64,000 nucleotides of DNA from Larkinella soli (lineage in GTDB: Bacteria > Bacteroidota > Bacteroidia > Cytophagales > Spirosomataceae): the NCBI RefSeq assembly GCF_003703975.1, contig NZ_QTJY01000008.1, positions 186,001-250,000 of the forward strand, given 5' to 3'. Below are positions 11,911 through 25,228 of this stretch, piece after piece. Every line of letters starts with the position of its first letter. Position 1 is the stretch's first letter. A model generated the notes under the pieces. The model had not been told where the DNA came from and made no database searches. It saw only the letters and a list, made by a program, of their open reading frames with translations. A program made the translations under genes and the position numbers.

Positions 11911-14900
11911 ATGAAAAAATGCCTATTTCTACCTGAAATTCGTATCCTTATGCGAATTAGCCTGGCCCATTTCCTGCTGCTTCTGCTCACCGGCTTTTCG
12001 TACGCCCGCCCCGTCCGGGCGCAGGAGGTGCTGAGTAAGAAGATCACCCTCTCCTACCGGAATACGCCGATCGAGCGTGTGCTGGAAAGCCTCGAAAAGG
12101 CCGCCGACGTCCGTTTTCTCTACAGCCCCGAGCTGATCGGCTCGGACCGGACCGTCAGCCTGGAAGTCTCGCGCGAGAAGTTTTCGGTCGTGCTCGAACA
12201 GCTCCTGAAACCGCTCCGGCTGCAATATGAAGTCTCCGGCCGGACCGTGGTGCTCCGGCGGGCCGCCGACGTCCTGCGTCCGGGCGAAACGCCGTCCGCT
12301 TTCCCAAAGGAGGGGCCGGCAGACCGTACCGTCGACGGAAAGGTAACGGGTGAGAACGGGGAAGCGCTGCCGGGTGTCAGCATTCAGATCAAGGGAACCA
12401 CGCGCGGCACTTCGACCGGAGCCGACGGCACATTCCGGCTTACGGTTCCCGACGAAAACGCCACGCTGGTGTTCTCCTTCATCGGCTACCTGCCGGAGGA
12501 GGTGGCCGTGGGCAACCGCAGCACCTTCAATATCTCGCTCAAACCCGACATCAAATCCCTCCAGGAAATCGTGGTCGTCGGGTACGGGACGGTGAAAAAA
12601 GCCGACCTGACCGGTGCGGTTTCCACCATCTCGTCCAAAGACTTTCAGAATACCATCACCACCAACGTGGGACAGGCGCTGCAGGGCCGCTCGACGGGCG
12701 TCCAGGTGACGCAGAACACCGGCCGGCCCGGCGACAACCCCATCGTGCGGGTGCGGGGCGTGGGCACGACGGGTAATAGTAATCCGCTCTACGTCATCGA
12801 CGGCGTCATCACCGACGGCGGTATCGCCAACATGAACCCGGACGACATCGAAACCATGACGGTGCTGAAGGATGCGGCTTCCTCGGCCATCTACGGCGCC
12901 CGGGCCGCCAACGGCGTGGTGCTGATCACGACCAAACGCGGCAAGGCCGGCCAGAGCCGCATCAGCTTCAACATGTATTACGGGACGCAGAAAGCCTGGC
13001 GCCTGCCCCGTATGGCCAACGCCACCGAGTTTGCCACCCTGCAGAACGAGGCCCGCACCAACGCCGGCCTGACCCCCTACTGGGGCCGCATCGACACGCT
13101 GGGCGTGGGCAACGACAAGGTGGCCGAAATCTTCCGGACCGCCCCCATCCAGGATTACCACCTGACCCTGTCGGGCGGTTCCGAAAAGTCGCAGTATTCG
13201 GTTTCTCTGGGGTATTTCGATCAGGTCGGGATCGGCATCGGGGTCAAATACAAGCGGTATTCGCTGAACGTCACTTCCGACCATCAGGTGGCGAAGAAAC
13301 TGCGGTTCGGCAACAGCCTGTCGCTGACGCGGGGCGCCGAAACCAGCGGGGTCTGGAACGAGACGTTCGTGAACGCCATCCGGTTTTCGCCGACCATTCC
13401 GAAATACATGCCCGACGGCAACTACGGCTACGGCTCCCGGCCGGGCGAGCAGGTGGGCTACCTCTCCTCCCTCGCCAACGCCTACCTGTTCCAGAACGAC
13501 CTGACCCGCTACCGGGTGCTGGGCAACCTCTACGGCGAATACCAGTTTACGCCCAACCTGAAGCTGCGGGCCACGCTCGGCGTCGACTTCCTGCTCGACA
13601 ACGGCATCAGCTTCGTGCCGACCTACGCTTTCGGGGGCCGGACCAATTCGGTCAACACCCTCGACCGCACCAACGTCATCAGCACCACCTGGCTAAACGA
13701 AAACCTGCTTTCCTACGATAAGACCTTCGGCTCACACAGCCTCTCGGCGCTGGTCGGGCTGACGCAGCAGGCCAACCGCTACGACAACTTCACGGCCCAC
13801 CGCGAGAGCTTCCCCAACAATGACATCCGGGTGCTGGACGCCGGGGCGCTCAACGACCGCGCCCGGGGCAGCGCGTCGGAGTGGTCGATCCGCTCGTTCA
13901 TCAGCCGGGTGAACTACAACTACCAGGAGAAATACCTGCTGTCGGCCAACCTGCGGGTCGACGGTTCGTCGCGCTTCGGGGCCGGCAACCGCTACGGGGT
14001 GTTCCCGTCCTTTGCAGCCGCCTGGCGGGTTTCGGGTGAGAAGTTCATGGAAAACCTGAAAGCCGTCTCCGATCTGAAGGTCCGGGCCAGCTGGGGCCAG
14101 CTGGGCAACCAGGAGATCGGTCTGTACTCGTTCACGACGGGCCTGAATCTCAGCCAGAACTACGTCATCGGTTCCGGGCAGGGCATCGCGCCGGGAGCCG
14201 CTCCGACCGCCCTCGGCAACCCGAACATCAAGTGGGAAACCACCACCATGCAGGACATCGGCATCGACCTGTCGCTGTTCAACAACCGGGTGTCGCTGAC
14301 GACCGACTACTTCGTCAAGAACACGAACGAAATGCTCGTGCAGGTGCCGATTCCGGGCACGACGGGCGTTTCCACGGCTCCCTTCCAGAACGTGGGCGCG
14401 GTGCGGAACTCCGGCTTCGAGCTGGCCCTGACCTACCGGCAGTCCGCCGGCGATTTCCGGTACGACGTCAGCGCCAACCTGACCACGATCAAAAACCGGG
14501 TGACCTCGCTGGCGGGCCTGCCGATCATCTCGGGCGTTTTCAAAACCGCCGAGGGCCAGCCGATCCAGTCCATCTTCGGCTATGTGCAGGAGGGCGTGTT
14601 CCAGACGCAGGAGGAAATCACCAGCCACGCCACCCAGCTCAACGCCAAACCGGGCGACATCAAGTGGAAGGACGTGAACAAAGACGGCGTCATCAACGAC
14701 CTCGACCGCGATTACATCGGCAACACCATCCCGCGCATCAGCTACGGTTTTACGGGGAACGCCAGCTACAAGGGCTTCGATTTCAGCCTGTTCATTCAGG
14801 GCATTCAGGGCCGGGAGGTGTATCTGGACGGCACCGGCGGACGGCGGCTGATGGATAACTTCGACAACACCACGGCCGAATACCTGAGCCGCTGGACCGG

Positions 14901-15213
14901 CCCCGGAACGAGCAACCGCGTGCCGCGGCTGGTCTGGGGCGACCCGAGCAACAACCGCCGGGTGTCGAGCTTCTGGGTGAGAGACGCCGGCTATATGCGG
15001 ATCAAGAACGTGCAGCTGGGGTATACGCTGCCGAAGGGTACGCTGGGCGTCGGCCGCATCCGGGTCTATGCAAGCTGCCAGAACCTGCTGACGATCACGC
15101 CCTATCCGTGGTTCGACCCGGAGGTGGGCGCCGGCATCGACAACAACTTCACCACCCTCATGACCTATCCGCAGCCCCGGACGATCCTGGGCGGTCTGAA
15201 CATCGACTTTTAA
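11911..15213 (+). CDS. SusC/RagA-family TonB-dependent outer-membrane transporter
   Basis: A TonB-linked glycan or oligosaccharide importer of about 1,100 residues. A signal segment (MKKCLFLPEIRILMRISLAHFL and a following hydrophobic stretch) ends near PVRAQ. An STN signalling domain (~40-110) is followed by a carboxypeptidase-D-regulatory-like domain (~140-225). The plug carries the SusC signature EIVVVGYGTVKKADLTGAV at about 225-245. The outer-membrane barrel runs to the end. The STN domain marks it as a transducer that signals through FecR. The ATG at 11911 is chosen because it starts the signal peptide; the open frame extends 81 bp further upstream. It is followed after 12 bp by susD. Confidence 0.95.
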   Translation: MKKCLFLPEIRILMRISLAHFLLLLLTGFSYARPVRAQEVLSKKITLSYRNTPIERVLESLEKAADVRFLYSPELIGSDRTVSLEVSREKFSVVLEQLLKPLRLQYEVSGRTVVLRRAADVLRPGETPSAFPKEGPADRTVDGKVTGENGEALPGVSIQIKGTTRGTSTGADGTFRLTVPDENATLVFSFIGYLPEEVAVGNRSTFNISLKPDIKSLQEIVVVGYGTVKKADLTGAVSTISSKDFQNTITTNVGQALQGRSTGVQVTQNTGRPGDNPIVRVRGVGTTGNSNPLYVIDGVITDGGIANMNPDDIETMTVLKDAASSAIYGARAANGVVLITTKRGKAGQSRISFNMYYGTQKAWRLPRMANATEFATLQNEARTNAGLTPYWGRIDTLGVGNDKVAEIFRTAPIQDYHLTLSGGSEKSQYSVSLGYFDQVGIGIGVKYKRYSLNVTSDHQVAKKLRFGNSLSLTRGAETSGVWNETFVNAIRFSPTIPKYMPDGNYGYGSRPGEQVGYLSSLANAYLFQNDLTRYRVLGNLYGEYQFTPNLKLRATLGVDFLLDNGISFVPTYAFGGRTNSVNTLDRTNVISTTWLNENLLSYDKTFGSHSLSALVGLTQQANRYDNFTAHRESFPNNDIRVLDAGALNDRARGSASEWSIRSFISRVNYNYQEKYLLSANLRVDGSSRFGAGNRYGVFPSFAAAWRVSGEKFMENLKAVSDLKVRASWGQLGNQEIGLYSFTTGLNLSQNYVIGSGQGIAPGAAPTALGNPNIKWETTTMQDIGIDLSLFNNRVSLTTDYFVKNTNEMLVQVPIPGTTGVSTAPFQNVGAVRNSGFELALTYRQSAGDFRYDVSANLTTIKNRVTSLAGLPIISGVFKTAEGQPIQSIFGYVQEGVFQTQEEITSHATQLNAKPGDIKWKDVNKDGVINDLDRDYIGNTIPRISYGFTGNASYKGFDFSLFIQGIQGREVYLDGTGGRRLMDNFDNTTAEYLSRWTGPGTSNRVPRLVWGDPSNNRRVSSFWVRDAGYMRIKNVQLGYTLPKGTLGVGRIRVYASCQNLLTITPYPWFDPEVGAGIDNNFTTLMTYPQPRTILGGLNIDF

Positions 15214-15225
15214 TCTGCCGAATCC

Positions 15226-16659
15226 ATGAAAAAGATCATCATAGCCGCGGGATTACTGCTGGCGGGCTGCCGGAACGATTTTCTGGAAAAACAGCCGCTG
15301 AGCGCCGTCACCCCCGATAATTTCTACCGAACCGCCGACGATGCCCTGCGGGCCGTCAATGCCGCCTACCGACCGCTGATGTCGAGCGGGGTCGGACAGT
15401 TCGGAATCGACCGTTACGGCAATTACATGGGCGGGGATGCGGTTTCGGCCGGCGACGACGCCAACTGGGTGCAGATCCAGAACTTCACCGTCACCTCCGA
15501 CAATGCCGCCATCCGCAATACCTGGAATGCCTTCTACCAGACCATCTTCCGGGCCAACCTCGTCCTGGACCGGGTGCCGGCCATCACCATGGACGCGACG
15601 CTGAAGAACCGGATTCTGGGCGAAGCCGCCTTCCTGAGGGCCATCTCCTACCACTACCTGATTCTGCTGTTCGGCGACGTGCCCCTGATTACCCGACCGC
15701 AGTTCGATCCGGGTGAGTTTCTGGTGCCCCGGACGCCGGCCGAGCAGGTCTATACGCAGATTATCCAGGACCTCCAGACCGCCGAGAAAAGCCTGCCGCT
15801 CACGTATGGAGCGGCTGATCTGGGCCGGGCCACGCAGGGGGCCGCCAAAGCCTTCCTGGCGAAGGTGTATCTGTACCGGAAGCAGTGGCCCGAAGCGGCC
15901 GCCAAAGCGAAGGAAGTGATCGACTCGAAGGTATACGGCCTCTTCGACCGGTATTTCGACAATTTCGAACTGACGACCGAAAACGGGAAGGAGTCGATTT
16001 TCGAGGTTCAGTATGCTTCGTTTTTGGGCGGGCTGGGCAACCAGACCAACAACTACGACGCCCCGCGCGGCTCGGGCTTCACGCTCGACGGTGGTTACGG
16101 CTACGGTTCACCCACGCAGAGCTTCGTCTCCTCGTTTCCTGCCGCCGACCCCCGCCTGGGGTACTCGGTGTTTCGGCAGGGTGACGTGTTTCAGGGCATC
16201 CCCTACAGCCCGGCCACCTCACCGACCGGGTACAGCCCGCGCAAATACGTGGTCGGAAAAGGAGCCGCCATCGGCAAGAGCGACGACCCGAAGAACTTCA
16301 TCCTGATGCGCTACGCCGACCTGCTGCTGATGTATGCCGAAGCCCTGAACGAGTCGGGCAAAACGGCGGAGGCCGCGGCCCCGATCAACCAGGTGCGGGC
16401 GCGGAAAGACGTGAACATGCCGCCCGTAGCCGCCGGGCTGACCCAGGCCCAGATGCGCCAGACCATCAAGGACGAGCGCCGGGTGGAGCTGGGGCTGGAA
16501 GGCCACCGCTGGTTCGACCTCCTGCGCTGGGGTGATGCGGCCGCGTTCCTGAAGTCGATCGGCAAAACCAGCTACCGGGAGGGCGTCAGCGAGCGCTTCC
16601 CGATCCCACAGGCCGAGCGCGACATCAACCCGAACCTGACGCAGAACCCGGGTTACTGA
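15226..16659 (+). CDS. SusD/RagB-family surface glycan-binding lipoprotein
   Basis: A 477-residue lipoprotein with lipobox LAGC (Cys15) and the typical start FLEKQPLS. The SusD N-terminal TPR-like part (NTWNAFYQTIFRANLVLDRV, FLRAISYHYLILLFGDVPL) is followed by the C-terminal RagB part (LLMYAEALNESGKTAEA, RRVELGLEGHRWFDLLRWG). It partners the preceding SusC to capture glycans at the cell surface and cap the transporter. A strong bidirectional terminator follows, so fecR-susC-susD is the transcription unit. Confidence 0.95.
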   Translation: MKKIIIAAGLLLAGCRNDFLEKQPLSAVTPDNFYRTADDALRAVNAAYRPLMSSGVGQFGIDRYGNYMGGDAVSAGDDANWVQIQNFTVTSDNAAIRNTWNAFYQTIFRANLVLDRVPAITMDATLKNRILGEAAFLRAISYHYLILLFGDVPLITRPQFDPGEFLVPRTPAEQVYTQIIQDLQTAEKSLPLTYGAADLGRATQGAAKAFLAKVYLYRKQWPEAAAKAKEVIDSKVYGLFDRYFDNFELTTENGKESIFEVQYASFLGGLGNQTNNYDAPRGSGFTLDGGYGYGSPTQSFVSSFPAADPRLGYSVFRQGDVFQGIPYSPATSPTGYSPRKYVVGKGAAIGKSDDPKNFILMRYADLLLMYAEALNESGKTAEAAAPINQVRARKDVNMPPVAAGLTQAQMRQTIKDERRVELGLEGHRWFDLLRWGDAAAFLKSIGKTSYREGVSERFPIPQAERDINPNLTQNPGY

Positions 16660-16679
16660 TCGGATTTCCAAAAAAGTAC

Positions 16680-16726
16680 AGGCCCCGGAATGTGTAGCGA
16701 TGTGCTACACATTCCGGGGCCTTTTT
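16680..16726. terminator. Strong bidirectional terminator
   Basis: A perfect 19-bp stem (16680-16698 with 16704-16722, loop of 5) is preceded by six A residues nearby and followed by a T5 run. It separates the convergent susD and GH9 genes. Confidence 0.92.
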
Positions 16727-16741
16727 CGTTCCGGCCGGAGC

Positions 16742-18523
16742 TTACTTCCCCTGCGTAGCTTCCAGCGCCCAGGCCAGATAGACCATCGGAGCGTTCCAGT
16801 TGATGGCGATCTCATTGGAGGCATACGAACATGACTGGTCGAGGAACATCTCGTCGGCCGAGGTGGCGGTATAGCCTTCACAGCGGTCCTGGCGCGGGGC
16901 GTTACCGTTCGGTCCGCCCGACAGCAGGCCCGGGACCGGCTCCGTGATGCCGTCGGCCACGGAGGGACGGTGGTGCGGGTTCATTACCGGTTTATCCCCG
17001 AAACCGGTCAGAAAGCAGAAACCGGTGGCATTCCGGCCGAGCAGAAAATCGAGGTTGGCGAGGGCGTTGTCCAGATACACTCTCCGTCGGGCCGGGTCGG
17101 TCGACACCCGCCAGGCCTGGATCAGCGCGATGCCCTGGTTGGCCGCTACGGCGCTGCTGCCCCAGATGTAATCGGCCGCCGTTTTGCCCATGACGGTCTG
17201 GTAAGCCTGCCGGTCTGCTCCCTGTACGAGGGCGTCGGCCGCGTCGATCAGGCGTTTTTTGAGGGCGGGCAGGTCTTTTTTCCCGGCCGGCGTCAGTGAT
17301 TTCTCAAAGCGGGCGAGGGTGTAATAGGCCAGCGTCCGCACCTGCGCCCAGGACGGCAGTGGGGTTTTGTCGTCCGGGAATAGATTGACGGCGGTGTAAT
17401 AGGCATCGTCGCCGGTGGTGACGTACAGTTCGGCCGCAGCCCAGATCCACTCATCGGACGCGTCCCGGTCGCCGTATTCGCCCGTCGCCACGTCGGGGTC
17501 GAACTGCTCGTTCATGGCGTTCTGGCGGTAGAGCTGGTCGGGATGCTGCTTCGCCCAGTTCCAGGCGCGGACGGCCGCACTCCGGCAGGAGTCGGCCAGA
17601 CCGGGCAATTCGCGCGGGTATTGCCGGACGATGCGCGACGCCTGGGCCATGACGGCGGCAAAGTCGAGGGCGGCCGTGACGCTTTTCTGTACGACATACC
17701 GCTCTTTGGTCGCCTTGTCGGGCATCACCATCCCGTCAAATCTCGGGTTGGTCAGTTTATGGTAAACGCCCCCGTCGGCCGGGTCCTGCATGGTCAGCAT
17801 CCAGCGCAGGTTCCAGAGCGTTTCGTCCAGCAGGTCCGGCACCCGGTTGCCCGACTCAGGCAGGTTGGCCTCCACCGTCCGGACGTACTCCGGAAAATCC
17901 TCATAGAGCGACAGCAGCGTCCCGACCGTAATGCCGGAATTGACGATATACTTGTTGTAGTCTCCGGCGTCATACCAGCCCCGGGGGGAGGAGATCACCG
18001 TTCCGGCCGGGCGCGAGGCCGAAGCCGCCGACGGATGCACCAGCACCTGCGTGTCGGGGTGGCCGGCCGGCCGTGCCCACTTCCCGGCATACCGGGCGGG
18101 CAGGTCCACCGACATCCGCTGGTAATAGAAGCCTTTCAGGGAGGCAATCGCCACCTCCCGATGGACGTTGGGCCGGATCTCGAACGGATACGACGCCCCC
18201 AGACCGGGCACCGCCACGACATAACTGCCGCTGGTTCTGAACGCCGAAAAATCGGCGGTGCGGGCGGTTCTGCCGGAGATGGCGTTGGTGCGCGGGGCGC
18301 TCAGCTTGCCGCGGAAAACCACCTTTTTCCGGTCGGGCGTCGTGATCTGAAATTCCGTACCGGCCTCCCCGACTACGATGGCGGTTTTGGGGGCGTTGGG
18401 ATAAAAACCGACCTGGTTAAGCCGGATGTCGGTGGAAAGGGACTGAGCCTGAGCAGAATGAAAACCGGCCAGACCGGTGATCAGGGCAAGGGAATAAAGC
18501 GTCGGAAGTTTAATTCGAAACAT
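16742..18523 (-). CDS. GH9-family endoglucanase-like glycoside hydrolase
   Basis: A 593-residue secreted enzyme with a signal peptide ending near AQAQ. A CelD_N-type immunoglobulin-like domain (~30-115) is followed by an (alpha/alpha)6 catalytic domain. The catalytic-base motif WYDAGDYNKYI has Asp185 and Asp188. NPHHRPS and the C-terminal acid Glu571 (SNEIAINWNAP) complete the GH9 active site. The family hydrolyses beta-1,4-glucans, xyloglucan or related polymers. The gene is convergent with the SusCD operon and shares its terminator, so it is probably regulated separately. No dockerin or carbohydrate-binding module is seen. Confidence 0.92.
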   Translation of the reverse strand: MFRIKLPTLYSLALITGLAGFHSAQAQSLSTDIRLNQVGFYPNAPKTAIVVGEAGTEFQITTPDRKKVVFRGKLSAPRTNAISGRTARTADFSAFRTSGSYVVAVPGLGASYPFEIRPNVHREVAIASLKGFYYQRMSVDLPARYAGKWARPAGHPDTQVLVHPSAASASRPAGTVISSPRGWYDAGDYNKYIVNSGITVGTLLSLYEDFPEYVRTVEANLPESGNRVPDLLDETLWNLRWMLTMQDPADGGVYHKLTNPRFDGMVMPDKATKERYVVQKSVTAALDFAAVMAQASRIVRQYPRELPGLADSCRSAAVRAWNWAKQHPDQLYRQNAMNEQFDPDVATGEYGDRDASDEWIWAAAELYVTTGDDAYYTAVNLFPDDKTPLPSWAQVRTLAYYTLARFEKSLTPAGKKDLPALKKRLIDAADALVQGADRQAYQTVMGKTAADYIWGSSAVAANQGIALIQAWRVSTDPARRRVYLDNALANLDFLLGRNATGFCFLTGFGDKPVMNPHHRPSVADGITEPVPGLLSGGPNGNAPRQDRCEGYTATSADEMFLDQSCSYASNEIAINWNAPMVYLAWALEATQGK

Positions 18524-18577
18524 GCGGGTTCAGGATTTCCGCAAAACTACCGTTTATTTCTTTTCCGGCGGGAAAGT

Positions 18578-19228
18578 TTATCCGGTTTCCGGTTCCTCCA
18601 CCGGCCGGAACCGGGGCGTAGAAGCTCCTTCGGGAACACACAGAACGCCGACGTACCCCCCGGGAACATCCAGAGGGTCATACCGCCAGCGCTGGGCATC
18701 CGGCCCGCTTCCGACAACCGCCCGGTCGCCGTCGAGCCGGATCGACCTGAAATCCAGCGACAGCCCCAGTCCCCTGGCTTTAGCCAGACTTTCCTTTCGG
18801 GTCCAGTAATGGAAAAACCGCGTCGGAGTGGTCAGAAGGTCTTCGTATTCCTCGGGCGTCAGCAGGTCGCGGAAATCGAGGAGGGAGACGCTGCGGCATT
18901 TTTCCAGATCGACGCCCACCGGCCCCTCGTCCGACACGGCCACCGCGACTACGTCTTCGGAGTGGGCAATGCTGAACTGCTGCGGCCCGGCCAGCACCGG
19001 CCTTCCGTAGCCGTCCAGCCGGATTTCTTCCAGGCAGGAAGGCGGCCGGCCAAGTTCCATGAGCAGTTGACGCAGCCCGATTTTGCCGAAAAGCGCCGTA
19101 TGCCGGTCCTGCCAGCGACGATAGCGCAGCACCCGCTCCCGGACGGCCGCCGGAACGGTCGCCAGCCGGTCCTGAAAGGCTTCAGCCGGCAAAGGCCGTT
19201 CGAACTGGAGCCACTGATAAAGAATCAT
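18578..19228 (-). CDS. 4'-phosphopantetheinyl transferase, Sfp type
   Basis: The enzyme attaches the phosphopantetheine arm of coenzyme A to carrier-protein serines. The family signatures GVDLEKCR and HYWTRKESLAKARGLGLS are intact, giving the magnesium-binding Asp/Glu residues. The best start is the ATG at 19228 (MILYQWLQF, 216 residues). An ATG at 19282 would add 18 residues. It is divergent from the NRPS gene starting at 19328, which carries two carrier domains, so it very likely activates that protein. The surface-acting Sfp type (rather than AcpS) fits secondary metabolism. Confidence 0.88.
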   Translation of the reverse strand: MILYQWLQFERPLPAEAFQDRLATVPAAVRERVLRYRRWQDRHTALFGKIGLRQLLMELGRPPSCLEEIRLDGYGRPVLAGPQQFSIAHSEDVVAVAVSDEGPVGVDLEKCRSVSLLDFRDLLTPEEYEDLLTTPTRFFHYWTRKESLAKARGLGLSLDFRSIRLDGDRAVVGSGPDAQRWRYDPLDVPGGYVGVLCVPEGASTPRFRPVEEPETG

Positions 19229-19327
19229 TCCGCTTTCGACCGATTGAACAAAACCGGTCGGAAAGTAGACGCTTTCCGCCATCTTTCCACTATCTTGACC
19301 CAAAAATCGCTATACCCGGCTTAAGGT

Positions 19328-22300
19328 ATGCCTTTTAGTTGCTATGTGGTGGGCGAGGGGCCTCTGCCGGTCGAATGCACACGAATCCTGCTGGAGCGGG
19401 GCTTTCAGGTCCGGGGACTGATCACCGCCGAGCCGACTCTCCGCCAGTTTGCCGACGAACACCAGCTTCCCTGCTTTCCGTATTCCGATCGCGCCATTGC
19501 CGAAATGGCCGCACAACCCTTTGATTTCCTGTTCAGTATCGTCAACGGCCAATTGCTGCCGGAAGCGGTTCTGAACCTGCCCCGGCGGCTGGCGGTCAAC
19601 TACCACGACAGCCTCCTGCCGGCCTATGCCGGCGTTCATGCCACGTTCTGGGCCATCCTCAACGGCGAATCCCGGCATGGCGTGACCTGGCACCGGATGG
19701 ACGCCGGCATCGACACCGGCGAGGTGCTGATGCAGCAGGCCGTTGCGGTTGCTCCGGACGAAACCTCCCTGAGCCTGAACCTGAAATGTTTTCAGGCCGG
19801 GCAGGAATCCTTCGCCCGGCTGCTCGACGCCCTTCTGTCGGAAACCGTTTCCGCCCGCCCGCAGAATCCGACGGGCCGGTCCTTTTATTCCCGGCGCCGG
19901 CGGCCCTCCACTTTCATCGACTGGCAACGGACGGCAGAGGAGATCTGGCGACAGCACCGGGCGCTGGAGTTCGGATTCCATCCAAATCCCTTCGGAAAAC
20001 TGAAACTCCGGCTGGAAAATGAGCTGTTTCTGGTCGAGAAAGCCGAACCGGCGGACCGTTCGGACGGCCTCGCTCCCGGAACCATCGAAGCCGTTGCCCT
20101 GGATCACCTCCGGGTCGCTGCCGCTTCCGGCGCCCTCAACATTTCCGCCCTACAAGCCCTTGATGGGCAACCGGTTGAGTTATCCATACTGATTCAACGA
20201 TTTACTCTAAAACCGGGAGTCCGGCTGCTTTCTCCTGAACCGGCCGTCCAGGAAGCCCTGCGGCAGGCCGATGCCGAAAGCGCTCCTTACCGTACCGTCT
20301 GGACCGACCGGCTGGCCCGCTTCGAAGCCACCGAGCCGCCCTTTACAAGTACTGCCGTGGCTGAAGGCAGCCCGGAATGGATGACCCTGGACCTTCCGGC
20401 GCCCGGCTTTTCCTCCGGGCAGCAGATCGGTGCCTGGATCGTGTACCTGAGCCGGGTCTGCGGAACCGCAACCGTGGGCACAGGCTACCGGACCCACCGC
20501 CTGATGCAAACCGCAGCCGCTACCGGCAAGCTGTTCGGCGATGTTCTGCCGAACCGGCTGGAAATCGACCCGGATGCCGGTTTTCGAACGGTCTGTGCCT
20601 CCGTCGACGGGCAGCTTCAGGACCTGGAAACCCTGCCGCCCTTTCCGCTCGATCTGATTGCCTGTGAACCGGCCCTGCGGGGCAAATCCTTCCGGTCGGT
20701 TCCGGTCATCCTGACCCGGCTGACGGAGCCGGAGGGCTACCGGCCCGCCGAACCGGAGGCTCTGCACTTTGTGATCCACGAAACCGGAAGCGCCCGGCTG
20801 GTCTTTTCGCCCCGTTGGTGGAATCCGCGGCTGCTCGCTCATGTTCCCGACCACTGGCAGGCCCTTCTGAACGACATTACCCGCCACCCCGACCGCCCGG
20901 TCGGGAGCCTGAGCCTGCTTACCGACGAACAGCGACACCGCCAACTGGTCGAGTGGAACCGGACGCCAACGCCCTATCCCGATCACCGGTCGCTTCCCCG
21001 ACTGGTGGAGCAGCAGGCCGGCCTCCGGCCGGAGGCCGTTGCCCTCCGCTTTGAAACGGAAAGCTGGACCTATCGGCAACTGAACGAAAAAGCCGACCTC
21101 CTCGCCGACCGGCTTCAACTCCGGGGCATCGGCCCCGGCCAACCGGTCGGTATCTGTCTGGAGCGGTCGCCCGAACTGGTTTGCAGCCTGCTGGCCGTCC
21201 TGAAAAACGGAAGCGTCTGCGTTCCCCTCGATCCGGACTACCCCCAGGCACGTCTGGCAGAGATGGCCGCCGATGCGGGTCTCAGCGGCATCCTGGCCCG
21301 GCCCTCCTTCCGGGACCGGCTTTCCTCCCTCGGAATACCGCTCATCGACCCAGAAACCGACCTGATTCCGGAAGGGAAAATCCAGACCCGGCGACCGCAT
21401 CACCCGAAACCCGAAGACCCGGCCTATTTGCTGTATACCTCCGGCTCGACCGGTCGGCCGAAAGCCGTGGTGATCCCGCACCGGGGCATCATCCGGCTGG
21501 TGCAGCAGCCGGATTACGCCGTTCTGGATGCCTCGACGGTACTGCTCATGCACTCGTCGATTTCCTTCGATGCTTCTCTGTTCGAGATCTGGGGCAGTCT
21601 GACCAACGGCGGCCGGCTGGTTCTTTTACCGGGCCGGCACCCCGGGCCGGGAGACTATCGGCAGATGATCCGGGAAGAAGCCATCAACACCCTGTTCCTG
21701 ACCACCGCCCTGTTCAACGTCCTGATTGACACCGGCCTGCTGCAGGGGCATTCCAGTCTGAAATATCTGCTGACCGGAGGGGAAGCCGCTTCGGTTCGGT
21801 CCATGCGGGCGGCCCGGGAGCAACTCCCCTCCTGCCGCATTCTGAACGTTTATGGGCCGACGGAAAACACCACCTTCTCCACCTGGTTCGAGGAGGCCGA
21901 TCTGGCTCCCGACGCCGAAACCGTACCGATCGGGCGGCCGGTTTCGCAGACGCGCGTTTACCTGCTGGACGGTTCCCGAAACCCGGTTCCGGTCGGGGTG
22001 CCGGGTGAGCTGTTCGTGGGGGGCGCCGGGCTGGCCGACGGGTATCTGAACCGGCCGGACCTAACTGCCGACCGGTTTGTACCGGACCCTTTCCGGCCCG
22101 GCACCGGCGAGCGGCTGTACCGAACCGGCGATCTGGGTCGCTACCGCCCCGACGGCGCCATCGACTTTCTGGGACGGATGGACCAGCAGGTCAAAATCAG
22201 GGGTTACCGGATCGAACCGGGCGAAATTGAAAACGTGTTGCGGGCTCATCCCAACGTCCGGGAAGCACTGGTCACCGTCCGCGAACCGGTGCCGGGCGAC

Positions 22301-25228
22301 AAGCGGCTCGTCGCATATCTGATCCCGGGAAGTGGCTCCCTATCGACGGAATCCGTCCGGGAATTTCTCCGGGAACGGCTGCCGGAATACCTGGTTCCCT
22401 CGGCCTGGGTGACGCTGTCCGCCTTCCCGCTGACCCCGAACGGAAAAATCGACCGGAATGCCCTGCCGGCTCCGAACCGGCAGGGCGACCTCAGCGAAAC
22501 CGGATGGACTCCGACCGAAAAGACCCTGGCCGGACTCTGGGCGGACCTGCTGAAAACACCGGTCGGCGGGCGCGACGATCACTTTTTCGACGCAGGCGGC
22601 CATTCGCTGCTGGCGATGCAGCTCGTAAGCCGGATCAACCGCCGGTGGGCGGTCAGCCTGCGCGTCGGTGAGGTGTTCGACCACCCCACCCTCTCAGGTC
22701 TGGCGGCCCGCATCGACCGGCCTCCAGCCGGGCCAGGGGACCTGCCGGCGCCGATTCCCTCCCGGGTCGAAGGCCCCATTCCGCTCTCGTTCGCCCAGAA
22801 ACGACTGTGGATGCTGCACCGGCTGTACGAACTCGGCGGCACCTACAACGTACCGCTCGCCCTCCGGCTGACGGGCCCGCCCGACCTCCCTGCGCTCGAA
22901 CGGAGCCTGACCGAACTGGTCCGTCGCCACCCGGCGCTGCGGCTGATCCTGACCGAAACCGACGCCCTTCCCCGGCAGCAGGTAGAAGCGCCCTGGTTAA
23001 TTTCACTCCCGGTAGTCGATTTATCCGGTTCGGCCGAACCGGCGCGGAATGAATGGCTTTCGGCGGAGGTGGAACGCCCGTTTCTCCTTGGCGGAGACCG
23101 GCTGTTCCGGGCGGCTCTGGTCCGGCTCGACGCCGACCGGCATCTGCTTCTGCTGGTCATTCACCATCTGATCGTGGACGGCTGGTCGTTGCAGATACTG
23201 ACCTCCGACCTGATCACCCTGTACGAGACTTTTCGGCAAGGCCGGCCGTCCTCCCTGCCGGAACTCCGGTTCCAATACGGCGATTACTGCCGCTGGCAGG
23301 AACAGGTCCTGACGCCCGGCATGCTGGCACCGGAGGCCGTCTACTGGCAGGAGAAGCTGGCCGGGCTGCCGACGCTGCTGCCCCTGCCCACCGACCGGCC
23401 CCGTCCCCGGGTGCAGTCCTTCGCGGGCGCGGAACACGGCTTTCTGCTTCCCGGCCCGCTCTGGCGCCGGCTGCGGTCGGTCACTTCCGGCCAGACCGCC
23501 TTCATGCACCTGCTGGCCGTTTTTGCGGTGCTGCTTCACCGCTTTGCCCAAACGGAAGACGTGGTGGTGGGAAGCCCGGTGGCCGGGCGGGATCGCCCCG
23601 AATGGGAGCCGCTGGTCGGATTTTTCGTCAATACGCTGGTCTTCCGGATTTCGGTAAACGGCCGCCGGACGTTCCGGCAGGTGCTGGAAGAGGTCCGGCG
23701 GGTAACGCTGGATGCCTTTTCCCACCGGACCTATCCGTTCGAACAGCTGGTCGAGCGGCTGAACCCGCCCCGCGACCTCGCCTATAGCCCTGTCGTTCAG
23801 GTGGTGATGGATCTGGACGAAACCGCCGGGCGACCCGGAACGCCGGGGCATCCGGGGTTTGAGCCGGTTCCTGTCCCCCGGAAAACCGCCAAATTCGACC
23901 TGCACCTTTCCTTCCGGGAAACGCCGGAGGGAATGGAGGGCACCTTCAGCTATCCCGTCGCGCTGTTTGGGCCGGAAACCATCGCCCGCCTGGCGGAAAC
24001 GTATGTGTCGATCTGCCGCCGGGTTACCGCCCGGCCGGACCGGCCGCTGGCGGAGGTTCTGGGACCGGCTCTTTCCGAATCAGGCATTCATTCGGCTCCA
24101 CCGGGGGTGTTACTGCCTGCGGAGGTCATTCCGGCCGAAGGCAATGCCCCCGAACCGACGGAACAGGAGGCCTTGCTGGCCGAACTTTGGAAGGACCTGT
24201 TTGGTGTTTCGTCCGTGGGGCCGGATGACCATTTTTTCGAACTGGGCGGCCATTCCCTGCTGGCGATCCGGCTGGTGGCGGAGATTCAGACCCGAACCGG
24301 AATCCGGCTGCCCGTGGCCGATCTGTTCGCTCACCCGACGCTCCGGGCACTGGCCGGCTGCCTGCGGTCCGCATCCCCCGACCGGCTTCGGCAGACGCTG
24401 GTTCCCCTCCGGCCCGGGAAGGGGGCGGCCGCGCTGTATTTTATTCACCCGGTTACCGGCACGGTCGATTATGTGCACGCACTGGCCTCCGCCTTCCCGG
24501 AAAGCCACCCGGTTTATGCTTTTCAGGCGGTCGGGCTGGACGGCGAAACCCCGCCCCTGACCCGAATCGAAGACATGGCCGAACGGTATCTGGAAGCCCT
24601 GCTGGCCCGGCAGCCGACAGGCCCTTACCACCTGATCGGCTACTCCATGGGGGGCACGATTGCCTACGAAATGGCGGGGCGTCTGAAGGCGATGGGGAAG
24701 GAAGTGGGGCTGATCGCGCTGCTGGACAGCTACCCGCTCCGGCAGCACGAGAATATCGTGTATGACCTGCCGCTGAGCCTGATGCTGCGGAACTACTGGA
24801 ACTATGCCCGGCGGATGGAAGTACGCCCGCAGTCGCTCTGGAAGGTGGCGACCCGCAAGCTGCCGGCCGCGACCCGGCATTTCATCAACCGGTTCCGATA
24901 TTACATTGAAAATCAACTGAAAACGGAACGAAATGCGCCGGTCGCCGATCCTGTCCCGGGCAGCAGCGACCCGGTTTTCAGGGCCAATCTTCAGGCTTAC
25001 CATGCCTACGTCTTCCGGCCCGCACCGGTAAAAATCGTCTTTTTCCGGGCCACGGAAACCCTGGCCGACCTGACGAAAAATCTTCCCGACTCCGATTTCG
25101 GCTGGAAGGTCTACGCTCAGGCGGGGGTGGACGTCTTTACTGTTCCCGGCGACCACCTATCCCTGATTCAGAACCGGGAGTCCATTCGGTTCATGGCCGG
25201 AATCCTGAATAAATACCTTACTTCCTGA
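19328..25228 (+). CDS. Formyltransferase-NRPS hybrid: F-(half C)-A-PCP-C-PCP-TE
   Basis: A 1,966-residue megasynthase. Residues 1-290 are a formyltransferase with the catalytic triad Asn91, His93, Asp129 (NYHDSLLP and DAGIDTGEV). Residues ~310-530 match only the C-terminal half of a condensation domain and have no HHxxxDG. The adenylation domain (~555-1045) has LYTSGSTGRPK at 702-712, YRTGD at 931-935 and Lys1040. The by-eye specificity code is D-A-F-F-L-G-V-T-F-K, which suggests an aliphatic or other hydrophobic residue (low confidence). Carrier 1 has Ser1093 and carrier 2 has Ser1643. A complete condensation domain (~1150-1580) has HHLIVDG at 1279-1285. The thioesterase has GYSMGG (Ser1773). 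The second module has no adenylation domain. The product is unknown, perhaps an N-formyl acyl-amino-acid or short peptide. Confidence 0.92.
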   Translation: MPFSCYVVGEGPLPVECTRILLERGFQVRGLITAEPTLRQFADEHQLPCFPYSDRAIAEMAAQPFDFLFSIVNGQLLPEAVLNLPRRLAVNYHDSLLPAYAGVHATFWAILNGESRHGVTWHRMDAGIDTGEVLMQQAVAVAPDETSLSLNLKCFQAGQESFARLLDALLSETVSARPQNPTGRSFYSRRRRPSTFIDWQRTAEEIWRQHRALEFGFHPNPFGKLKLRLENELFLVEKAEPADRSDGLAPGTIEAVALDHLRVAAASGALNISALQALDGQPVELSILIQRFTLKPGVRLLSPEPAVQEALRQADAESAPYRTVWTDRLARFEATEPPFTSTAVAEGSPEWMTLDLPAPGFSSGQQIGAWIVYLSRVCGTATVGTGYRTHRLMQTAAATGKLFGDVLPNRLEIDPDAGFRTVCASVDGQLQDLETLPPFPLDLIACEPALRGKSFRSVPVILTRLTEPEGYRPAEPEALHFVIHETGSARLVFSPRWWNPRLLAHVPDHWQALLNDITRHPDRPVGSLSLLTDEQRHRQLVEWNRTPTPYPDHRSLPRLVEQQAGLRPEAVALRFETESWTYRQLNEKADLLADRLQLRGIGPGQPVGICLERSPELVCSLLAVLKNGSVCVPLDPDYPQARLAEMAADAGLSGILARPSFRDRLSSLGIPLIDPETDLIPEGKIQTRRPHHPKPEDPAYLLYTSGSTGRPKAVVIPHRGIIRLVQQPDYAVLDASTVLLMHSSISFDASLFEIWGSLTNGGRLVLLPGRHPGPGDYRQMIREEAINTLFLTTALFNVLIDTGLLQGHSSLKYLLTGGEAASVRSMRAAREQLPSCRILNVYGPTENTTFSTWFEEADLAPDAETVPIGRPVSQTRVYLLDGSRNPVPVGVPGELFVGGAGLADGYLNRPDLTADRFVPDPFRPGTGERLYRTGDLGRYRPDGAIDFLGRMDQQVKIRGYRIEPGEIENVLRAHPNVREALVTVREPVPGDKRLVAYLIPGSGSLSTESVREFLRERLPEYLVPSAWVTLSAFPLTPNGKIDRNALPAPNRQGDLSETGWTPTEKTLAGLWADLLKTPVGGRDDHFFDAGGHSLLAMQLVSRINRRWAVSLRVGEVFDHPTLSGLAARIDRPPAGPGDLPAPIPSRVEGPIPLSFAQKRLWMLHRLYELGGTYNVPLALRLTGPPDLPALERSLTELVRRHPALRLILTETDALPRQQVEAPWLISLPVVDLSGSAEPARNEWLSAEVERPFLLGGDRLFRAALVRLDADRHLLLLVIHHLIVDGWSLQILTSDLITLYETFRQGRPSSLPELRFQYGDYCRWQEQVLTPGMLAPEAVYWQEKLAGLPTLLPLPTDRPRPRVQSFAGAEHGFLLPGPLWRRLRSVTSGQTAFMHLLAVFAVLLHRFAQTEDVVVGSPVAGRDRPEWEPLVGFFVNTLVFRISVNGRRTFRQVLEEVRRVTLDAFSHRTYPFEQLVERLNPPRDLAYSPVVQVVMDLDETAGRPGTPGHPGFEPVPVPRKTAKFDLHLSFRETPEGMEGTFSYPVALFGPETIARLAETYVSICRRVTARPDRPLAEVLGPALSESGIHSAPPGVLLPAEVIPAEGNAPEPTEQEALLAELWKDLFGVSSVGPDDHFFELGGHSLLAIRLVAEIQTRTGIRLPVADLFAHPTLRALAGCLRSASPDRLRQTLVPLRPGKGAAALYFIHPVTGTVDYVHALASAFPESHPVYAFQAVGLDGETPPLTRIEDMAERYLEALLARQPTGPYHLIGYSMGGTIAYEMAGRLKAMGKEVGLIALLDSYPLRQHENIVYDLPLSLMLRNYWNYARRMEVRPQSLWKVATRKLPAATRHFINRFRYYIENQLKTERNAPVADPVPGSSDPVFRANLQAYHAYVFRPAPVKIVFFRATETLADLTKNLPDSDFGWKVYAQAGVDVFTVPGDHLSLIQNRESIRFMAGILNKYLTS

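What the first reader, a model, noticed from the sequence alone, without database searches (positions are those of the whole stretch)
19328..25228. Single-gene NRPS with formyltransferase start and unusual domain order, paired with its own PPTase
The gene encodes F-(half C)-A-PCP-C-PCP-TE in one 1,966-residue protein, divergent from an Sfp-type PPTase. N-formylating loading modules are known (for example linear gramicidin), but this order with a TE and only one A domain looks like a compact, self-contained pathway for a formylated or acylated amino-acid product. No other biosynthetic or export gene is nearby.
Basis: partly seen in the sequence, partly recalled or inferred. Interest (0 to 1): 0.72.

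Follow-up and report, generated by a model that had tools for sequence, protein, structure and literature searches.

The report
Compact formylating peptide synthetase with activator
A Larkinella bacterium carries one giant enzyme that probably formylates an amino acid, joins it to a second unit and releases it, next to the small enzyme that switches it on; it belongs to a small family for which I found no description, in which a formylating domain sits where half of a peptide-bond-forming domain should be.

Summary
Window 19328-25228 encodes a 1,966-aa NRPS, F (Fmt/ArnA type) - half C - A - PCP - C - PCP - TE, divergent from a PPTase; active-site residues are present. The "half C" is the C-terminal lobe of a condensation domain, so F stands in place of the N-lobe. 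F plus half C is not unique: a GTDB scan gave 48 related loci, the half C recognised at 39, over many phyla. The full order with an A-less C-PCP-TE end was found only in Cytophagales: the focal gene, three other Larkinella and two Spirosoma (one split by a frame break). The focal gene branches outside the other Larkinella and Spirosoma copies (about 40% identity, against 71-79% for two flanking core genes). It holds the only C domain and only NRPS-type A domain found in its genome. A sister group in another Cytophagales family is F-halfC-A-PCP-TE with a Cys-like code; two of its five loci also have a divergent PPTase. Most likely product: an N-formyl branched-chain dipeptide, one A loading both PCPs. 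This is inferred; a free-amine acceptor or loading in trans remain open. New variant of a known kind.

The parts
19328..19837 (+). F domain, catalytic part (aa 1-170); N91, H93, D129
   Evidence: Pfam Formyl_trans_N 65-162; fold match of the F part to Fmt and ArnA; N91, H93 and D129 invariant in the 39-row alignment A3. That these are the catalytic residues of Fmt is recalled.
19880..20227 (+). F domain, C-terminal domain of Fmt/ArnA type (aa 185-300)
   Evidence: Pfam Formyl_trans_C 195-289; ArnA alignment 57-305
20279..20947 (+). half C: C-terminal lobe of a condensation domain, no HHxxxDG (aa 318-540)
   Evidence: HHalign probability 99.3 to columns 187-430 of a C profile; in relative L159 Pfam Condensation matches positions 153-455 of 456; no Pfam hit in the focal piece itself; model mean pLDDT 93.2 for aa 1-552
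20990..22462 (+). A domain (aa 555-1045), specificity residues DAFFLGVTFK
   Evidence: Pfam, TIGR01733 443.6 bits; code
22505..22717 (+). PCP1, S1093
   Evidence: Pfam PP-binding, two stretches in the protein; alignment
22769..24058 (+). C domain, HHLIVDG (H1279, H1280, D1284)
   Evidence: Pfam 316.9 bits; alignment
24149..24379 (+). PCP2, S1643, joined to C by a short variable linker; no A remnant seen
   Evidence: Pfam best PP-binding stretch 1616-1679; linker read from the alignment
24410..25219 (+). TE domain, S1773, D1800, H1943
   Evidence: Pfam Thioesterase 1703-1952; the three residues kept in 6 of 6 compared copies
18578..19303 (-). Sfp-type phosphopantetheinyl transferase, likely true start at 19228
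   Evidence: Pfam ACPS 48.1 bits, cut-off 25; start reading
19229..19327 (.). upstream region shared by the two divergent genes
   Evidence: sequence; promoter not searched

Best explanation
A two-gene, probably horizontally acquired unit for an N-formylated dipeptide. The PPTase primes PCP1 and PCP2 (inferred). The A domain activates one branched-chain amino acid (Val/Ile type, inferred from its code) and, being the only NRPS-type A domain found in the genome, loads both carriers (inferred). The F domain uses formyl-tetrahydrofolate to formylate the amino acid on PCP1 (inferred from Fmt-type residues and from LgrA). The half C lacks the catalytic histidines; it is best read as the surviving floor of a C-A platform that holds F beside A (inferred). 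The C domain joins formyl-aminoacyl-PCP1 to aminoacyl-PCP2, and the TE releases the formyl dipeptide (inferred). Shown: domains, order, conserved active-site residues, C-lobe nature of the half C, one A and one C domain in the genome, related loci. Not shown: substrate, loading of PCP2, product.
For: Domains and order. Active-site residues kept in every copy that holds the domain: F in 8 of 8; C, PCP1, PCP2 and TE in 6 of 6 (the Spirosoma G213 copy read as two separate pieces). One Condensation match and one A domain above the TIGR01733 cut-off in the focal genome; at E<=1e-40 the L. humicola stand-alone A finds in the focal genome only this gene's own A. The A-less end is shared by 6 of 6 copies that cover it, so it is old. 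A code DAFFLGVTFK in focal and L. humicola; DALFIGGTFK, DALFVGGTFK and DALFAGGTFK in the others; reading these as Val/Ile type is recalled. NRPS and PPTase have the two lowest GC3 values of 16 window genes that I picked (0.754 and 0.727; the others 0.787-0.859). The focal copy branches outside the other Larkinella and Spirosoma copies (those six hold together at 100 SH-aLRT). The GH9 and phosphodiesterase flanks are 77-79% and 71-74% identical in 8 of 8 congeners, but 36-49 kb apart there.
Against: No biochemistry. L. humicola has a separate A gene 44 bp downstream whose code differs from A1, so at least there PCP2 may be loaded in trans. Adenylating enzymes below the TIGR01733 cut-off exist in the focal genome (for example ORFs of 824 and 607 aa at 189.6 and 171.9 bits) and were not examined as possible loaders. 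Glidonin synthetase shows that a terminal C domain can take a free amine although PCP and TE follow (PMC10587159, section 9, part 1 of 2). The codon-usage distance of the NRPS (0.118) lies within the range of the 14 other genes (0.066-0.135), so the compositional signal is weak; very old paralogy is not excluded.
Confidence: 0.45

Rival explanations
1. The terminal C domain uses a soluble amine (for example a polyamine) as acceptor and releases a formyl-aminoacyl amide; PCP2 and TE are structural or clear stalled intermediates.
For: Glidonin module 13 (C-A*-T-TE) works this way, and the paper lists C-T, C-A-T-TE and lone C endings among putrescine-adding synthetases (PMC10587159, section 9 part 1 of 2). 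The focal last module lacks any A.
Against: PCP2 serine and the TE residues are kept in 6 of 6 copies at 39-73% pairwise identity, although glidonin, where T is needed and TE still hydrolyses, shows that this does not exclude it.
Confidence: 0.25
2. PCP2 is loaded in trans by a separate adenylating enzyme, as in SyrE/SyrB1, giving a mixed formyl dipeptide.
For: L. humicola has a stand-alone A gene (555 aa, AMP-binding 290.7 bits) 44 bp downstream in the same direction. SyrE ends in C-T-Te and gets its last residue from SyrB1 through SyrC (PMC8949500, section 14 read in full).
Against: No A domain above the TIGR01733 cut-off outside large synthetases in the focal, L. terrae, L. knui or Spirosoma G227 genomes. 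Ligases below the cut-off (focal 824 and 607 aa; G227 494 and 513 aa at 185.9 and 187.6 bits) were not examined.
Confidence: 0.2
3. The gene is decaying or inactive, a leftover of a larger cluster.
For: No other biosynthetic gene among the scanned neighbours; one Spirosoma copy (G213) lies in two frames; the half C is weakly conserved (21-24% against 36-51% for the other domains).
Against: Open over 1,966 codons with all active-site residues; five other colinear copies, four of them in one open frame.
Confidence: 0.07

Closest known systems
Linear gramicidin synthetase LgrA (F-A-PCP initiation module)
   Same: F at the N-terminus that formylates the PCP-bound first residue, valine (PMC5053139, passages); best solved relative (912 bits in all, best stretch 551-1559)
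   Different: Its F matches only residues 62-181 of this F, and only about 40 residues separate that match from its A domain, so there is no half C. That LgrA continues into further full modules and has no TE-ended A-less module is recalled.
Fmt and ArnA formyltransferases
   Same: The two-part F domain matches by sequence (ArnA over 57-305) and by fold (TM-score by target length up to 0.87 among the 50 rows shown)
   Different: Fused to an NRPS; presumably acts on aminoacyl-PCP instead of tRNA or a sugar nucleotide
SyrE terminal C-T-Te module (syringomycin)
   Same: Terminal module without A (PMC8949500)
   Different: SyrE is served in trans by SyrB1 and SyrC; no counterpart above the cut-off in the focal genome
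Glidonin termination module 13 (C-A*-T-TE)
   Same: Terminal C, T and TE without a working A (PMC10587159)
   Different: Glidonin keeps a partial A; here only a linker is left
F-halfC-A-PCP-TE single-module genes of another Cytophagales family (L159-L163)
   Same: Same F-halfC unit, sister group (97 SH-aLRT for both together); in 2 of 5 a divergent PPTase
   Different: No C-PCP; A code DLYNFSLVWK in 5 of 5, Cys-like by recall

Membership tests
Formylating NRPS initiation module (LgrA kind) | N-terminal formyltransferase domain with N, H, D residues | tested here: met
Formylating NRPS initiation module (LgrA kind) | F joined directly to A (F-A-PCP) | tested here: not met
   a C-lobe of about 220 aa lies between F and A (in relative L159)
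Formylating NRPS initiation module (LgrA kind) | formylates aminoacyl-PCP | not testable with these tools
   needs biochemistry
NRPS with TE release | A core, PCP serines, C HHxxxDG, TE Ser-Asp-His present | tested here: met
SyrE-type split terminal module | A-less C-T-TE end | tested here: met
SyrE-type split terminal module | separate A or A-T partner encoded in the genome | tested here: not met
   none above the TIGR01733 cut-off in the focal genome, which is 99.98% complete in 82 contigs; ligases below it not examined; one lies beside the L. humicola copy
Amine-adding termination module (glidonin kind) | C domain accepts a free amine | not tested
   the glidonin C13 sequence was not at hand, so its acceptor residues were not aligned
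Sfp-type PPTase | ACPS superfamily domain preceded by its N-terminal half | tested here: met
   ACPS 48.1 bits over cut-off 25; N-terminal half AASDHPPT_N 22.8 bits, E 1.1e-4, below its cut-off 27

The most novel reading that the evidence does not exclude
Cytophagales carry a family of minimal stand-alone formyl-peptide factories: F grafted onto the C-lobe of a beheaded condensation domain, one A domain, a TE, and at some loci a PPTase of their own. The single-module branch makes N-formylcysteine; the Larkinella/Spirosoma branch uses one A domain to load two carriers and makes a formyl homodipeptide, a one-A, two-residue logic inside one protein.
Probability: 0.3. Interest if true: 0.65.

Novelty: new variant of a known kind. 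Interest (0 to 1): 0.48.

Why it matters
A 2022 review counts three peptides formylated by an NRPS F domain and says F is always in the initiation module (PMC8949500, passages). Here is a one-protein formylating system small enough to test; a natural fusion in which a formyltransferase sits on half a condensation domain, a model for how a tailoring domain can be grafted onto a module; and a direct test of whether one A domain can serve two carriers in cis.

Tried and rejected
Rejected: that the half C is a full or catalytic C (it aligns to the C-lobe only). Rejected: that an A domain was lost recently in this strain (A-less in 6 of 6 copies). Rejected: the adjacent PPTase as the genome's only one (two matches). 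My first reading of the A code had position 278 one column off; the corrected anchor returns DILQLGLIWK and DAFWLGGTFK for two modules of L073, close to or equal to the Gly and Val codes that I recall.

Results that did not help or went against: the fold search lists only formyltransferases in its 50 rows, so it neither supports nor opposes the C-lobe reading. Pfam does not report the half C in the focal protein, L161 or L163, scores it below the cut-off in L081 (23.1 against 30.6) and above it in L159 (51.3). My half-C model was silent at 9 of the 48 GTDB loci: L098, L099, L101, L102, L107, L110, L112, L113, L117. Viral contigs: 81 pattern hits, no relative. Near DNA match in plasmids: none.

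Literature: combined searches for half, partial or truncated condensation domain with formyltransferase and NRPS and for Bacteroidetes formyltransferase NRPS gave no paper; Larkinella with gene cluster gave two unrelated listings; no paper holds N-formylcysteine (either spelling tested) together with both 'nonribosomal' and 'thioesterase' (by the ranking of the six rows shown). Most listed papers were not opened, and the library lacks most subscription journals.

Full report
WHAT IS THERE. The ORF 19328-25228 (+) encodes 1,966 aa. Pfam finds Formyl_trans_N and _C, AMP-binding and its C-terminal domain, two PP-binding stretches, one Condensation and one Thioesterase domain. The order is F-Fc-halfC-A-PCP-C-PCP-TE. 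The piece between F and A gives no Pfam hit in this protein. A profile of 36 half-C pieces (35 used by the program) aligned with a profile of 38 full C domains at probability 99.3, E 1.3e-20, over columns 187-430 of 430, the C-terminal lobe only; the rows were those that my own domain models picked out of the fetched loci above score limits. In the related protein of L159 Pfam itself matches Condensation positions 153-455 of 456 there (51.3 bits); in L081 the same region scores 23.1 bits, under the cut-off of 30.6. The active-site motif HHxxxD (C3) belongs to the N-subdomain (PMC10212144, passages), which is the part missing here. The F domain matches ArnA (aa 57-305) and Fmt by sequence and by fold over alignments of about 300-320 columns; LgrA's F matches only aa 62-181.

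THE NEIGHBOUR. 18578-19303 (-) is an ACPS/PPTase-family protein. The genome holds a second one on contig C6, which is 74-77% identical to a PPTase in 8 of 8 other Larkinella; the adjacent one shows 27-35% local identity to the 15 other Larkinella PPTases compared (of the 17 matches one, L056, was not extracted). So the adjacent one is an extra. The neighbours I scanned are SusC-like, GH9, a type I phosphodiesterase, a RhaT-like transporter and an aldolase-dehydrogenase; other window ORFs were only listed.

HOW COMMON. In the focal genome (99.98% complete, 82 contigs) there is one Condensation match and one A domain above the TIGR01733 cut-off. Of 9 Larkinella genomes 4, the focal one included, have the F-halfC gene; of 222 genomes of the family 7 (4 Larkinella and 3 of a genus that a matching contig names Spirosoma). 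In samples drawn from larger groups, 6 of 390 genomes of the order and 2 of 395 of the phylum, each count including the focal genome. The GTDB scan returned 48 loci with a relative of the F-halfC query; my half-C model was found at 39 of them. Only L070, L071 and L074 (L. terrae, L. knui, L. humicola) show A-PCP-C-PCP-TE behind it; L072, L077, L078 and some others run off their contigs and cannot be judged. Spirosoma G227 has the whole order in one ORF, and G213 the same order in two frames. The 6 copies keep the C, PCP and TE active-site residues; the F residues are kept in 8 of 8.

HISTORY. In a 60-row F-halfC tree (quick search, SH-aLRT only; L114, L116, L117 and the duplicate L153 left out) the C-PCP-TE copies lie on one side of a branch with one contig-truncated Spirosoma copy among them; focal is sister to the other six (96), which hold together at 100. 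In the first tree (57 rows) the focal fork had 92. Focal identity to the three Larkinella copies is 40-42%, against 77-79% for GH9 and 71-74% for the phosphodiesterase. In the 8 congeners these two flanks are 36-49 kb apart; here they enclose the PPTase-NRPS pair. The pair has the two lowest GC3 values of 16 genes chosen by me, while the codon-usage distance of the NRPS is not outside the others' range. I read this as acquisition of the pair by transfer; very old paralogy is not excluded.

SISTER GROUP. The search of 390 genomes of the order brought 5 loci in 4 genomes of another family (f5): F-halfC-A-PCP-TE, one module, 1,491-1,519 aa. 5 of 5 have the code DLYNFSLVWK, close to the Cys code DLYNLSLIWK that I recall. 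Two (L159, L160) have a PPTase gene divergent just upstream, confirmed by Pfam, and an ORF downstream that in L159 matches DUF418 (the L160 ORF was not scanned). A Spirosoma contig (L153, the same as L077) has a PPTase directly upstream in the same direction. So a PPTase beside the gene was seen at 4 of 13 Cytophagales loci looked at (focal, L027, L029, L030, L031, L150, L151, L153, L159-L163). For L027, L029 and L030 one search places the PPTases of those genomes on other contigs; for the rest absence was judged by eye from ORF lists, and L031 and L163 are short contigs.

HOW IT LIKELY WORKS. The A code DAFFLGVTFK suggests Val or Ile (recalled). With a single NRPS-type A domain in the genome, PCP2 must be loaded by it, by an unrelated ligase, or not at all. 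I favour loading by the same A, giving formyl-Xaa-Xaa released by the TE (0.45). The free-amine route shown for glidonins (PMC10587159, section 9 part 1 of 2) and trans loading as in SyrE (PMC8949500, section 14) are real rivals; the extra A gene of L. humicola, whose aligned residues read DIVQMCLIYK with the corrected column (alignment printed), speaks for the second in that species. The half C probably keeps the C-A platform on which F sits; the structure job that might have tested the halfC-A packing was not accepted.

NOVELTY. A 2022 review names three F-domain products and says F is always in the initiation module (PMC8949500, passages). Discodermin clusters are reported with a formyltransferase loading module and calyxamides have a formyl starter (PMC12858407, passages); the listings of phthoxazolin and conglobatin papers also hold the words 'formylation domain' (PMC5764310, PMC4504003, search listing only). 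My searches showed no description of the F-half-C fusion or of this order; they cover an open-access library, and I opened passages or sections of only six papers. Whether the known anabaenopeptilide or kolossin F modules also hold a half C was not tested; a cyanobacterial relative (L073) does. I file it as a new variant of a known kind.

Noticed in passing
L081:9947-14677 and 14681-21271; by domain gaps also L083, L087, L088, L091, L095, L096, L097, L101, L104, L106, L109, L114: F-(half C)-A-PCP with a luciferase-like monooxygenase inserted in the A domain, in L081 followed by a PKS gene with KS-AT-KR-DH-ACP-TE (Pfam run for L081 only; the other 12 loci show a similar gap inside A, content not checked).
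   Followed up: partly
L079, L085, L115 (cyanobacteria); L108, L110, L111, L112 (Verrucomicrobiota/Kiritimatiellota): F unit in the middle of an assembly line, directly after a C domain, against the statement in PMC8949500 that F is always in the initiation module (Pfam run for L115). In L110 and L112 my half-C model was silent.
   Followed up: partly
L159-L163: Single-module F-halfC-A-PCP-TE genes with one shared Cys-like A code; two have a divergent PPTase and, downstream, a membrane-protein-like ORF (DUF418 in L159).
   Followed up: partly
L022, L023, L024, L026 and L025: F-halfC-A starts of large NRPSs on plasmids typed as conjugative in Bradyrhizobium, Rhizobium and Paraburkholderia from legumes, and on a Mycetohabitans megaplasmid typed as non-mobilizable.
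   Followed up: no
G001-G008 (other Larkinella genomes): 8 of 8 have further large ORFs with NRPS-type A domains (about 1,370-2,260 aa) that the focal genome lacks.
   Followed up: no
L084:13480-18585: NRPS in bacterium UASB270 ending in an A-less C-PCP after a full module, directly behind an F-halfC-A-PCP gene.
   Followed up: no
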